Of a DNA stretch of 64,000 bases, positions 6,673 to 63,206 are shown in pieces. Origin of the DNA: Thiofilum flexile DSM 14609 (GTDB lineage: Bacteria > Pseudomonadota > Gammaproteobacteria > Thiotrichales > Thiotrichaceae); assembly GCF_000380185.1 (NCBI RefSeq), contig NZ_KB904802.1, forward strand, positions 63,167 through 127,166, in the 5' to 3' direction. Under the pieces are notes generated by a model. That model saw only the letters and a list, made by a program, of their open reading frames with translations. It searched no databases and was not told the origin of the DNA. Position numbers and translations under genes: made by a program. The first letter of the stretch is position 1, and every line of letters starts with the position of its first letter.

Positions 6673-6783
6673 AAAAAAGCTACGGAGTATTTCTTCCGCA
6701 GCCGCTGTAAATACATCCTTGTACGCTACAAGGCGGCATCCTTGCCGCCAAGACTGCTCCAGAAATACTCCGTAGCTTTTTTT
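6673..6783. terminator. Bidirectional terminator with a repeat core embedded in its hairpin (copy 1)
   Basis: A perfect 22-base inverted repeat (6673-6694 with 6761-6782), A6 on the outer left and T7 on the outer right, lies between the convergent COG4255-like and ureD genes, so it can terminate both. The 66-base interior (6695-6760) begins TCCGCAG and ends CTGCTCC. Inside the outer stem this gives a TCC/TCC internal loop and a GCAG/CTGC stem. The interior also holds small palindromes around ATCCTTG (TACATCCTTGTA; GGCGGCATCCTTGCCGCC). The same core recurs at 48314-48438 inside a different outer stem. Confidence 0.85.
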
Positions 6784-26030: not shown

Positions 26031-27542
26031 ATGTCGAATGATAACCCATCATCTAATAAATCCTTGCCAGATAACCATCTGTCTCCCACTTTTCCCCCCG
26101 ATAGTAAGCAAAAACATAAGCCTGAAACAGAGATGGAGATGGACATCAATTTGGCAAAATTGGGATTGAGCCATTTAGGTGACGAGCTGGATATACTGGA
26201 TGTCTTAGAGTCCTCTAGCCATCGACCCGTAACGGATGTGACAGCGTCCACTGTAAATGCCTTTGGTTTATCTAGTGCTCCAGTGGTGCCTAATTTCCCA
26301 GAGCTTAATACGCATACCACTCCGGTGGTGAGTCACACTAGGGTTATGCCTGATCTGACTACAGTTACCTCTTTGGTGTCATCGTGGGAACAGCCTACCA
26401 ACAGTGTTGCAACACCTGCCCCAATAGTTGAGCAGCGTCCTACTGCTAGCCCCAGCCTCAATCAGTCAACCCCAGCAGCAGGACAAAATAATAGCAATAC
26501 TACCAAGAGTACTACCCCAGAAGGGGGCAGTGGGGGCGTTCGCGTAGATAGCAAACCCAGCGATAATAAATCCAGCTCACCCGCACCAGAAGGCAGCACC
26601 GCTAGCACTCATAAAGCTAATCAACCTAGCCCCGCATCAGCAGAGGTAAGTGCTAGTACTCGTGCGGATAGCAAACCTATCCCATCCACTTCAGAAGGCA
26701 GCACCGCTAGTACTACTCGCACAGCGAATCAACCTAGCCCAGTCTCAGAAAGTGCTAGTGCTCGTGTAGATAGTAAACCTAGCTCACCCACACCAGAAGG
26801 AGCAGCGGCTAGCACTCGCACAGCGAATCAACCTAGCCCCGCCTCAGAAGGAGCCAATGCAAGTGCTCGTGTAGATAGTAAACCTAGCTCACCCACCTCA
26901 GGTAGCACACACTCATCTAGTCACAGCTCAGGATCGGAAAGTCCAGCCGGTAGTGCGCGAGTCATGGGTCTCAATAGCAGTATAAATAGAAGCAAATTAG
27001 CTGATAATAATAAAGACTCTACCGCTTTAGATGAGCCAGCAGTGAGTGTGCTGCAAAAGGTAATCAATGCTTATAATCAATTAGAGCAAGATATTGCGTC
27101 TAATAAAGTAGAGTTAGAATCCGTCCATAGTAAATTACTAACCGTAAAAGAGAAAAAACAAGCATTAGAAGTAAGACTGCACGAAATTACTCCGCAAGGT
27201 TTCCCCGCTCCTTTACAGAATACAAATAATAAAGAGACAGTTTTAGAGCTAGATTCACTCTATCAGGATGTCAAAGAGAGTAAAATGAATACGCAAAACC
27301 GTAGTTGCGATACGGTAATTGAATACACTAAAAGTATTCGTAAGCATATTGTGAGTGATTCCCAAAAAGCCGAGGAGTTTTTACGCCCTTTAAGCCTATC
27401 GTGTGAAATTTTAAAAACCAATATACAGCACGTTAGAACGCTAGAGCAGGTAGTTGAATTAATGGAAATTAAGAAAAGTCTGACTACTAAACGTAATGAA
27501 GTACATAAAACCATTAGTTTATTAATGGGACAAATTGCTTAA
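26031..27542 (+). CDS. Low-complexity Ser/Pro-rich repeat protein with C-terminal coiled coil
   Basis: 503 residues, no signal peptide or membrane segment. Residues ~1-165 are polar. Residues ~170-295 consist of about four imperfect tandem repeats of ~35 residues built on ARVDSKPSSP and TANQPSPASE. The C-terminal ~170 residues are helical with heptad-like patterning (INAYNQLEQDIASNKVELES) and end LTTKRNEVHKTISLLMGQI. The truncated gene at 63381 has the same layout and similar C-terminal spacing, which suggests a paralogous pair. Disordered N-terminus plus coiled coil suggests a structural or scaffold role, but nothing more can be said. Confidence 0.7.
   Translation: MSNDNPSSNKSLPDNHLSPTFPPDSKQKHKPETEMEMDINLAKLGLSHLGDELDILDVLESSSHRPVTDVTASTVNAFGLSSAPVVPNFPELNTHTTPVVSHTRVMPDLTTVTSLVSSWEQPTNSVATPAPIVEQRPTASPSLNQSTPAAGQNNSNTTKSTTPEGGSGGVRVDSKPSDNKSSSPAPEGSTASTHKANQPSPASAEVSASTRADSKPIPSTSEGSTASTTRTANQPSPVSESASARVDSKPSSPTPEGAAASTRTANQPSPASEGANASARVDSKPSSPTSGSTHSSSHSSGSESPAGSARVMGLNSSINRSKLADNNKDSTALDEPAVSVLQKVINAYNQLEQDIASNKVELESVHSKLLTVKEKKQALEVRLHEITPQGFPAPLQNTNNKETVLELDSLYQDVKESKMNTQNRSCDTVIEYTKSIRKHIVSDSQKAEEFLRPLSLSCEILKTNIQHVRTLEQVVELMEIKKSLTTKRNEVHKTISLLMGQIA
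26540..26911 (+). repeat. Imperfect tandem repeats in coding sequence (~102-121 bp units)
   Basis: About four units mark out the ARVDSKP/NQPSP repeats. The recurring GTAGATAGTAAACC or variants starts near 26543, 26664, 26766 and 26871. The last two full units (105 bp apart) are almost identical, so the array has expanded or been homogenised recently. All spacings are near multiples of three and preserve the frame. Confidence 0.8.
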
Positions 27543-48292: not shown

Positions 48293-48459
48293 AAAAAGTA
48301 GGTGAGTCTTTCTTCCGCAGTCGCTGTGAAAAAATCGTCAGGAGCGATTTTTCACGCCAGCTTGAGAGGCGCATGGACGCGCCGAATAATACATCCCTGT
48401 ACGCTACAAGGCGGCATCCTTGCCGCCAAGACTGCTCCAGAAAGACCCATCTACTTTTT
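48293..48459. terminator. Terminator with embedded repeat core (copy 2)
   Basis: Outer arms 48293-48313 and 48439-48459 pair over 21 bases with one G-T pair and one mismatch, with A5 at the left and T5 at the right. The 125-base interior (48314-48438) begins TCCGCAGTCGCTGT and ends TACGCTACAAGGCGGCATCC through GCCAAGACTGCTCC, matching copy 1, with 59 extra bases holding two more small palindromes (GAAAAAATCG/CGATTTTTC and GGCGC/GCGCC). It terminates the TRAP operon. The outer stem sequence (GTAGGTGAGTC) differs from copy 1 (GCTACGGAGTA). Confidence 0.85.
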
Positions 48460-60705: not shown

Positions 60706-61449
60706 GTGAGGCGTTTTATACCGATTGTATGCTTAGGTTTGGTCATTGTTGGTTTAGTAGTATTCATTAATATGAATCAGGATTACCAGCGAGCTGTCAC
60801 TGCTCATGAAGAGCAAAATTATGCGACAGCGTTTGAGCTTTTTAAGCCTCTAGCCGAGCAAGGTGATGCTAAAGCGCAATACCACCTAGGGCTTATGTAT
60901 GCCGATGGTGAGGGGGTCGAGCAAGATTATAGTGAAGCCATACAATGGTATACCAAAGCCGCCGAACAAGGTGATGTTCAAGCTCAATTCAACCTGGGAT
61001 CCCTGTATTACAGAGGCAACAGGGTCGAGCACGATTATAGCAAAGCCGCACAGTGGATGACTAAGGCCGCAGAGCAAGGACTGGCTCCGGCTCAACTCCT
61101 CCTAGGGGTTATATATGCTAAGGGCGAGGGGGTCGAGCAAGATAAAAGTAAAGCTGTGCAGTGGTATACCAAAGCAGCCGAACAAGGCGATACTCAGGCT
61201 CAACTCCTCCTAGGGGATATGTATGCTAAGGGCGAGGGAGTCGCGCAAGATAAAAGCAAGGCCGTAGAGTGGTATACCAAAGCAGCCGAACAAGGACTTG
61301 TTGACGCTCAATTCAACCTAGGAAATATGTACATCAAGGGTGAGGGAGTCGCGCAAGATAAAAGCAAGGCTGTGGAGTGGATGACCAAAGCGGCAGAACA
61401 AGGCAATGCTGAGGCTCAAAAAGCCTTGAAACAGCTCAATACAAAATAA
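60706..61449 (+). CDS. Sel1-like repeat (SLR) membrane-anchored protein
   Basis: About 247 residues from a GTG start at 60706, supported by AGGAG six bases upstream; an ATG at 60691 overlaps that Shine-Dalgarno and is less likely. The N-terminal RRFIPIVCLGLVIVGLVVF is a signal anchor. Then five full Sel1 repeats of 36 residues follow, such as AKAQYHLGLMYADGEGVEQD and WYTKAAEQGDVQAQ, and a partial sixth. The protein probably sits on the periplasmic side of the inner membrane and binds a partner via its helical solenoid. Partner and role are unknown. Confidence 0.85.
   Translation: MRRFIPIVCLGLVIVGLVVFINMNQDYQRAVTAHEEQNYATAFELFKPLAEQGDAKAQYHLGLMYADGEGVEQDYSEAIQWYTKAAEQGDVQAQFNLGSLYYRGNRVEHDYSKAAQWMTKAAEQGLAPAQLLLGVIYAKGEGVEQDKSKAVQWYTKAAEQGDTQAQLLLGDMYAKGEGVAQDKSKAVEWYTKAAEQGLVDAQFNLGNMYIKGEGVAQDKSKAVEWMTKAAEQGNAEAQKALKQLNTK
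60867..61440 (+). repeat. Tandem 108-bp repeats (Sel1 units)
   Basis: Five to six copies of a 108-base unit. Units 3-5 (roughly 61100-61400) are almost identical at DNA level, for example AAAGCAGCCGAACAAGG repeated and GATAAAAGCAAGGC repeated. This points to recent expansion or gene conversion. Each unit begins GC(T/G)CAA and ends at a Gln-Gly codon pair. Confidence 0.9.
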
Positions 61450-62654: not shown

Positions 62655-63016
62655 TGGTGGAGGCGGCGGGAATTGAACCCGCGTCCGTAAATCCTCTGCC
62701 TGAAGGCACTACATGCTTAGTCTATCTTTTATTTAACCCGCGTCCCGCTAATAGACAAGCTGGCATGTTGGGCGGTCCCAGTAATTTTTTAGTATCGCAG
62801 CCCTGAGCAAGCCTTGATACGATCTTGTGAGAGATTATGCCTGATTCGAGCGCACAAGCACGGCCTCTGTCAGACAGCACTCAACCGGTTATTAAGCGGC
62901 GAGAGCGTAAGAGTCGTCGTTTGCGACTATAAGTTGTGACTAGTGTTAAAGTGGTCACCACATCCACTGCATGCTCCCCAGGTTTTGTAATCCACGTCGA
63001 AGCCGGATCGCCCCCG
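62655..63016 (-). ncRNA. ssrA: Transfer-messenger RNA
   Basis: The 5' end GGGGGCGATCCGGCTTCGAC (minus strand) and 3' end CCCGCCGCCTCCACCA form the tRNA-Ala-like domain, with acceptor pairing GGGGGCG / CGCCTCC. The tag frame (62897-62926, minus strand) reads GCA AAC GAC GAC TCT TAC GCT CTC GCC GCT followed by TAA TAA, that is ANDDSYALAA after the tRNA-borne alanine. It rescues stalled ribosomes with SmpB, which is not in this window. Length 362. Confidence 0.96.
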
Positions 63017-63134: not shown

Positions 63135-63206
63135 GGCCTCATAGTTAAATGGATATAACGGCCCCCTCCTAAGGGGCAATTGCAGGTTCGATTCCTGCTG
63201 GGGCCA
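63135..63206 (+). tRNA. tRNA-Arg (anticodon CCT)
   Basis: 72 bases up to the discriminator: acceptor GGCCTCA / TGGGGCC, anticodon stem GCCCC / GGGGC with loop CTCCTAA (anticodon 63168-63170), T arm GCAGGTTCGATTCCTGC. The three bases after the discriminator (CGT) show that CCA is not encoded, unlike tRNA-Pro. It reads AGG codons. Confidence 0.93.

What the first reader, a model, noticed from the sequence alone, without database searches (positions are those of the whole stretch)
6673..6783. Terminator hairpin that carries a shared repeat core inside an unshared, self-complementary outer stem
Copy 1 (6673-6783) and copy 2 (48293-48459) share the core between TTTCTTCCGCAG and CTGCTCCAGAAA, but their outer stems are different (GCTACGGAGTA against GTAGGTGAGTC) and each is self-complementary, with A and T runs outside. 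Both sit immediately after a stop codon. The simplest reading is that a mobile or RNA-acting element inserts into the loops of intrinsic terminators, or that an RNA family keeps stem pairing by compensatory change. I know no described element with this exact layout.
Basis: partly seen in the sequence, partly recalled or inferred. Interest (0 to 1): 0.75.

Follow-up and report, generated by a model that had tools for sequence, protein, structure and literature searches.

The report
Dispersed hairpin repeat with CsrA-like loops
The two copies belong to a hairpin repeat found tens of times per genome across many Gammaproteobacteria; one strand carries paired loops that match the known binding site of the global RNA regulator CsrA/RsmA, so the genome may be strewn with decoy sites for it, though binding is untested.

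Summary
The two copies are members of a repeat with at least 97 copies in this genome and tens of copies per genome in Marinobacter, Stenotrophomonas and Microbulbifer. The same core occurs in Gammaproteobacteria only, as far as sampled. The "unshared" stems are not host terminators entered by an insert: they are homologous within a genome and keep Watson-Crick pairing while their sequence changes. This also holds at one orthologous Stenotrophomonas site. Arm mismatches show that the minus ("GGA") strand is the one that must fold: wobbles on that strand 90, on the other 29, p=2e-8. On that strand both hairpins read CANGGANG, the published CsrA/RsmE consensus. The four N positions rank 1, 2, 4 and 7 of 76 in variability. 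My reading is a transposon-like repeat carrying paired CsrA/RsmA sites, in part used as bidirectional terminators. CsrA binding is inferred. The kind is partly known: copy 1 is a sub-threshold match to Rfam TwoAYGGAY, already proposed to bind CsrA. The high-copy form with rewritten arms appears undescribed. There is no orientation bias, a point against.

The parts
6674..6783 (-). Copy 1, whole element (arms plus core). Strand given is the GGA strand, which is inferred to be the functional folding strand; the + strand carries TCC.
6674..6689 (+). Copy 1 left arm with A-run (AAAAAGCTACGGAGTA)
6690..6765 (-). Copy 1 core, 76 nt: TTTCT-TCC-GCAG ... CTGC-TCC-AGAAA on the + strand
6712..6723 (-). 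Copy 1 hairpin with CsrA-type octamer CAAGGATG in UACA-AGGA-UGUA (GGA strand)
   Evidence: sequence; octamer statistics
6732..6749 (-). Copy 1 hairpin with CsrA-type octamer CAAGGATG in GGCGGCA-AGGA-UGCCGCC (GGA strand)
   Evidence: sequence
6766..6783 (+). Copy 1 right arm with T-run (TACTCCGTAGCTTTTTTT)
48293..48459 (-). Copy 2, long variant, whole element
48293..48308 (+). Copy 2 left arm (AAAAAGTAGGTGAGTC)
48309..48443 (-). Copy 2 core, 135 nt, with two extra hairpins whose GGA loops lie on the + strand (TCAGGAG and CATGGACG)
48444..48459 (+). Copy 2 right arm (GACCCATCTACTTTTT)

Best explanation
This is a dispersed hairpin element of Gammaproteobacteria, 100-170 bp. Long self-complementary arms close a junction with two or more hairpins. 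Shown: it is one family; the arms are part of the element and stay complementary while their sequence turns over; the GGA strand is the one that has to fold; and its hairpin loops match the CsrA/RsmE consensus CANGGANG with freedom only at the two N positions. Inferred: when the GGA strand is transcribed (3' ends, read-through, antisense or its own transcripts), the two loops, 20 nt apart, bind a CsrA dimer. The copies would then act together as decoys and/or as cis sites that affect the host transcript. In this genome the class with A/T runs between convergent genes also works as a bidirectional intrinsic terminator. The spread is transposon-like: one class carries extra outer ends (TAAGTA...) and looks like a MITE. 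The element that drives it was not found.
For: At least 97 copies in the genome. Outer helix covariation with 0/500 shuffles, in this genome and in 61 elements of many genera (951 double changes against 286 in shuffles; covariation score 0.803 against 0.179). Arm mismatches are A.C rather than G.T on the TCC strand, 90:29, p=2e-8; by element 55 against 15, p=2e-6; own terminator class 16:2, p=0.001: G.U is tolerated on the GGA strand only. In 75 own copies the fixed octamer positions hold in 71-74 of 75, and the four N positions rank 1, 2, 4 and 7 of 76 in variability (mean non-major frequency 0.377 against 0.023 for fixed octamer positions and 0.039 for the rest). Octamer A2 is fixed although its partner N7 varies, so sequence and not pairing is kept. 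Hairpin 2, which the search pattern did not constrain at its loop, gives the same in 87 other elements. Extra hairpins of most long variants again carry GGA, on one strand or the other. At one orthologous Stenotrophomonas site stems changed by compensation while the octamers stayed. The consensus 5'-A/U-CANGGANG-U/A and the SELEX site RUACARGGAUGU are quoted in PMC6849547; TACAAGGATGTA in copy 1 fits both. csrA is present in this genome and in 28 of 29 element-bearing genomes of the sample. TwoAYGGAY, which copy 1 matches below threshold, was proposed to bind CsrA (PMC4333381). Terminator-class copies mostly lie within about 25 nt of a stop codon, 15 between convergent genes and 3 between divergent ones.
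Against: No orientation bias towards transcribing the GGA strand from the flanking gene (28 TCC-sense, 19 GGA-sense). One element-bearing draft genome (G211) has no csrA found. In the 135-nt variant the extra hairpins carry GGA on the opposite strand. A ssDNA hairpin recognised by a transposase could give the same strand asymmetry. The csrA association is weak because csrA is nearly universal in the class. No expression or binding data exist for these copies.
Confidence: 0.5

Rival explanations
1. A REP- or MITE-type mobile element: the GGA-strand hairpins are recognised as single-stranded DNA by a transposase (Y1/RAYT-like or another), and the resemblance to CsrA sites is incidental.
For: Dispersed, high copy; a MITE-like class with TAAGTA ends; inverted pairs of elements; many copies with the same arms and ends in single genomes. 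Strand-specific folding fits HUH transposases, which act on one strand.
Against: The same loop octamer is kept across many genera, whereas REPs and their RAYTs co-evolve (PMC2817692). No GTAG/GTGG REP signature. 4 of 29 element-bearing genomes have no Y1 transposase hit, one of them with 19 copies. Not found in plasmids, phages or E. coli. N positions and fixed positions fit the CsrA rule exactly.
Confidence: 0.25
2. The arms stay complementary because of mutation rather than selection: template switching or quasi-palindrome correction copies one arm onto the other, so the stem needs no function.
For: Almost only Watson-Crick pairs in the arms (1314 of 1403 cells); one copy (L150) has arms of 57 bp with one mismatch, unlike its sister copies; arm sequence turnover at an orthologous site.
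Against: Correction has no preferred strand, yet leftover mismatches are strongly strand-biased. The MITE class of the same genome keeps arms less well than the terminator class (8 of 58 perfect against 20 of 33). It could act together with selection.
Confidence: 0.15
3. Ordinary bidirectional terminators or mRNA-stabilising hairpins, with no protein partner for the loops.
For: Position just after stop codons, between convergent genes, with A and T runs in this genome.
Against: Does not explain conservation of loop octamers with free N positions, nor the elements of other genomes that were read, which mostly lack T runs.
Confidence: 0.07
4. A mobile core that inserts into the loops of existing terminators or palindromes.
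For: Core much more conserved than stems (mean difference 0.11 against 0.41 between copies); core found in both orientations inside the same outer ends, 30 against 10.
Against: Stems share an element consensus. No empty hairpin found in the genome. Shorter cores look like internal deletions that keep both core ends. Orthologous sites without the element look like deletions or plain lack, not uninterrupted palindromes.
Confidence: 0.03

Closest known systems
TwoAYGGAY RNA (Rfam RF01731, Weinberg et al. 2010)
   Same: Two hairpins with ANGGAN terminal loops in a junction closed by a poorly conserved external stem; reported from human gut, Gammaproteobacteria and Clostridiales (PMC2864571); proposed CsrA-binding RNA (PMC4333381). 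Copy 1 matches the whole model on the GGA strand.
   Different: 33.2 bits against a gathering score of 43; none of 11 further loci matched at E<=1. Not found described as a dispersed repeat of tens of copies or as having rewritten perfect arms.
Ysr224, Yersinia sRNA (Rfam RF02770)
   Same: Its consensus contains this core on the TCC strand; several copies from other genera match at 24-47 bits. It ranks among the most frequently annotated bacterial sRNAs and is listed as temperature-responsive (PMC9029176), as a dispersed repeat might.
   Different: Gathering score 70 not reached; modelled as a single sRNA gene on the other strand.
CsrB/CsrC and RsmX/Y/Z sponge RNAs
   Same: Hairpin loops with GGA that bind CsrA/RsmA.
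   Different: Those are few dedicated sRNA genes; no match of these families in the window at gathering threshold or at either copy at E<=10.
RsmU of Xanthomonas campestris
   Same: RsmA-sequestering RNA processed from a 3' UTR (PMC7694677).
   Different: One locus, reported as limited to Xanthomonas; not a repeat. Its sequence was not compared here.
REP/BIME elements with RAYT transposases
   Same: Short palindromic extragenic repeats, often in inverted pairs.
   Different: REPs are 20-40 nt with a GTAG/GTGG head and genome-specific sequences; here the core is kept across genera and a Y1 transposase is not always present.

Membership tests
TwoAYGGAY (RF01731) | Covariance model score at or above gathering (43 bits) | tested here: not met
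   Copy 1: 33.2 bits, E 9e-4, full length 1-168; other loci no match at E<=1
TwoAYGGAY (RF01731) | Two hairpins with AYGGAY-type hexaloops in a junction closed by an outer stem | tested here: met
   Loops ANGGAN on the GGA strand in own copies and other genomes; fold. The N is mostly A or G here, not Y.
Ysr224 (RF02770) | Score at or above gathering (70 bits) | tested here: not met
   Best 47 bits (L150), others 24-38
CsrA/RsmA-binding RNA | Loop consensus CANGGANG in hairpins, at least two sites | tested here: met
   consensus from PMC6849547
CsrA/RsmA-binding RNA | Direct binding by CsrA in vitro or in vivo | not testable with these tools
   needs EMSA or CLIP-seq
CsrA/RsmA-binding RNA | csrA present in the host | tested here: met
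   Own genome C24:74601-74756; 28/29 element-bearing genomes of the sample, G211 the exception
CsrA/RsmA-binding RNA | GGA strand transcribed | tested here: inconclusive
   No orientation bias relative to flanking genes; no expression data
REP element with RAYT | GTAG/GTGG head plus short palindrome and a Y1 transposase gene in the genome | tested here: not met
   Head absent in the copies read; Y1_Tnp missing in 4 of 29 element-bearing genomes
MITE | Terminal inverted repeats and target-site duplication | tested here: inconclusive
   Class i copies end in TAAGTA...TACTTA; a TA duplication is possible but no empty site or driving transposon was found
Intrinsic terminator | GC-bearing stem followed by a T run just after a stop codon | tested here: met
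   Copies 1 and 2 and part of class ii. Longest T run in class ii is 2-7, so weak in many copies. Termination itself not tested.

The most novel reading that the evidence does not exclude
A transposon-spread network of CsrA/RsmA sites: in many Gammaproteobacteria, tens of genes carry a paired CsrA-binding hairpin in their 3' region or antisense to it. Together these form a distributed sponge, or a retargetable CsrA regulon, that could stand in for CsrB-type RNAs where none is known (for example the Xanthomonadaceae).
Probability: 0.3. Interest if true: 0.8.

Novelty: new variant of a known kind. Interest (0 to 1): 0.6.

Why it matters
[quoted passage not shown] If right, CsrA activity would depend on the number and expression of repeat copies, and mobile repeats would be a source of new CsrA targets. 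It also gives a candidate for the RsmA antagonist that was reported missing in Xanthomonas (PMC3937308), and may explain why Ysr224 is so often annotated in genomes.

Tried and rejected
Insertion of the core into terminator loops: rejected after stem consensus, the search for empty hairpins and orthologous sites. Stem pairing kept as RNA on either strand equally: rejected by the mismatch asymmetry. RAYT/REP membership: not met. Presence on plasmids, phages and E. coli: none with a consensus core; 3 hits in viral contigs were not followed. Literature searches with core sequences found nothing, and general searches on CsrA with repeats found nothing relevant.

Full report
WHAT WAS CHECKED. Copy 1 is a 76-nt core (6690-6765) between perfect arms. 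Copy 2 is a 135-nt core (48309-48443) between arms with one G.T and one A.C mismatch. Each follows a stop codon closely, and copy 1 lies between convergent genes. The genome (G000, 3.79 Mb, 71 contigs) has at least 97 copies by a covariance model, so two in 64 kb is about the expected density.

ANATOMY. On the + strand of copy 1 the core reads TTTCT-TCC-GCAG, a hairpin TACATCCTTGTA, a hairpin GGCGGCATCCTTGCCGCC, then CTGC-TCC-AGAAA. In 91 copies read in full two classes exist. Class i has extra outer ends (TAAGTACTTGAGCC and TAAGTAGGTATACC) around the stem AAAGTAATCGRGTA, and looks like a MITE. Within these ends the core sits in either orientation, 30 against 10. Class ii lacks the ends, and a part of it has clear A and T runs: it mostly lies within about 25 nt of a stop codon, 15 between convergent genes and only 3 between divergent ones. 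Class ii stems differ by 41% between copies but only 5% between the two arms of one copy, while the cores differ by 11%. The stems share a consensus with class i (GGGTA next to the core, GTA further out), so they belong to the element and not to pre-existing terminators.

DISTRIBUTION. A second covariance model (R2, 61 elements) found it in 29 of 184 sampled gammaproteobacterial genomes. In a phylum sample it was found in 16 of 249, all in the same class. Marinobacter aromaticivorans has 69, Stenotrophomonas cyclobalanopsidis 80, S. rhizophila 43 and Microbulbifer donghaiensis 61 matches. A consensus core had no match in plasmids, phages or E. coli. Outside this genome the arms are typically 25-34 bp, nearly perfect, and different in almost every copy. 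The invariance of hairpin 1 in those loci is partly built in by the search pattern; hairpin 2 loops were free to vary.

COVARIATION AND WHICH STRAND FOLDS. In the 61-element alignment 951 cells have changes on both sides against 286 in shuffles, and all 32 arm pairs covary. The few mismatches are informative. On the strand with TCC in the loops, A.C mismatches outnumber G.T 90 to 29 (p=2e-8; by element 55 to 15, p=2e-6; own class ii 16 to 2, p=0.001). An A.C on that strand is a G.U on the other. Mutation has no reason to prefer one, because element orientation relative to genes is mixed. So the GGA strand is the one under selection to fold, as RNA or as single-stranded DNA. Elements within one genome share ancestry, so even the element-level p value is somewhat optimistic.

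THE LOOPS. On the GGA strand both hairpins read C-A-N-G-G-A-N-G. In 75 own copies the six fixed positions hold in 71-74 of 75 and the two N positions vary freely. Of 76 core positions the four N positions rank 1, 2, 4 and 7 in variability (chance that four given positions all fall in the top seven: 3e-5). The second position (A) is fixed although the base opposite (N) varies, so it is kept for its identity. Hairpin 2 in 87 other elements behaves the same. This is the RsmE/CsrA consensus A/U-CANGGANG-U/A, and the first hairpin (UACAAGGAUGUA) fits the SELEX site RUACARGGAUGU, both quoted in PMC6849547. Long variants from other genera add hairpins that mostly again show GGA, for example CAAGGAAG, CAGGGACG, CAUGGACG, CAGGACG. 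In the long variant of this genome the two extra hairpins show GGA on the opposite strand.

ORTHOLOGOUS SITE. At one Stenotrophomonas intergenic site, ten species carry the element with arms in at least four different sequences, mostly perfect over 26-28 bp. Hairpin 1 changed from TACATCCATGTA to CCCATCCATGGG, and hairpin 2 changed as well, while CATCCATG (or CGTCCATG in three species) was kept. Shorter alleles look like deletions. No uninterrupted palindrome was seen.

MECHANISM. The best reading is a mobile hairpin repeat that carries two CsrA/RsmA sites 20 nt apart on one strand. A CsrA dimer could bridge two such sites (established knowledge of CsrA). Copies whose GGA strand is transcribed would titrate CsrA or place it on the host transcript, and terminator-class copies would also end transcription both ways. 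Shown: family, structure, strand, loop rule. Inferred: transcription, binding, effect, mobility. The main points against are the lack of orientation bias, one element-bearing draft genome without csrA found (G211), and the possibility that a transposase reads the same hairpin as ssDNA. A Y1 transposase is absent from 4 of 29 element-bearing genomes, so RAYTs at least are not required.

KNOWN RELATIVES. Copy 1 matches Rfam TwoAYGGAY over the whole model on the GGA strand at 33.2 bits, below the gathering score of 43. Several copies match Ysr224 on the other strand at up to 47 bits, below 70. TwoAYGGAY was reported from human gut, Gammaproteobacteria and Clostridiales (PMC2864571) and was proposed in 2014 to bind CsrA, with an outer stem noted as poorly conserved (PMC4333381). 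So the idea of a paired-loop CsrA-binding RNA of this shape is not new. What I did not find described is that in Gammaproteobacteria it is a high-copy dispersed repeat with rewritten, strand-constrained arms. Only open-access papers could be searched.

VERDICT. Real, widespread, and a new variant of a known kind. The structural and loop evidence is strong; the functional claim stands at about even odds.

Noticed in passing
own genome loci L003, L004, L005, L022, L039, L046, L052, L061, L115, L122: The core is inverted relative to the asymmetric outer ends in 10 of 40 class i copies that keep both ends, as if the interior flips by recombination between the arms.
   Followed up: partly
L108:984-1059: A copy whose two core ends are perfectly complementary (TTTCTTCCGCAG...CTGCGGAAGAAA), which closes the usual TCC/TCC internal loop; suggests arm-to-arm copying.
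   Followed up: no
L150:4351-4381 (minus strand): A copy right after a gene that looks like lgt, with arms of 57 bp and one mismatch, unrelated to the arms of its sister copies in the same genome.
   Followed up: partly
genome G423, contig C1:94412-95646: Six R2 matches in a row at a spacing of about 227 bp: a tandem array of the element.
   Followed up: no
L047 around 990-1021: A truncated half element at the end of an open reading frame, whose end appears to supply the stop codon.
   Followed up: no
Rfam RF02770 (Ysr224): Ysr224 is listed among the most frequently annotated bacterial sRNAs (PMC9029176); this is probably because its model contains this repeat core.
   Followed up: partly
window 60852-61419 and 26562-26901: Other internal repeats: four copies at 108-nt spacing, and two to three diverged copies about 100-207 nt apart.
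   Followed up: no
window 62655-63015: tmRNA gene on the minus strand, with a tRNA nearby at 63135-63206.
   Followed up: no
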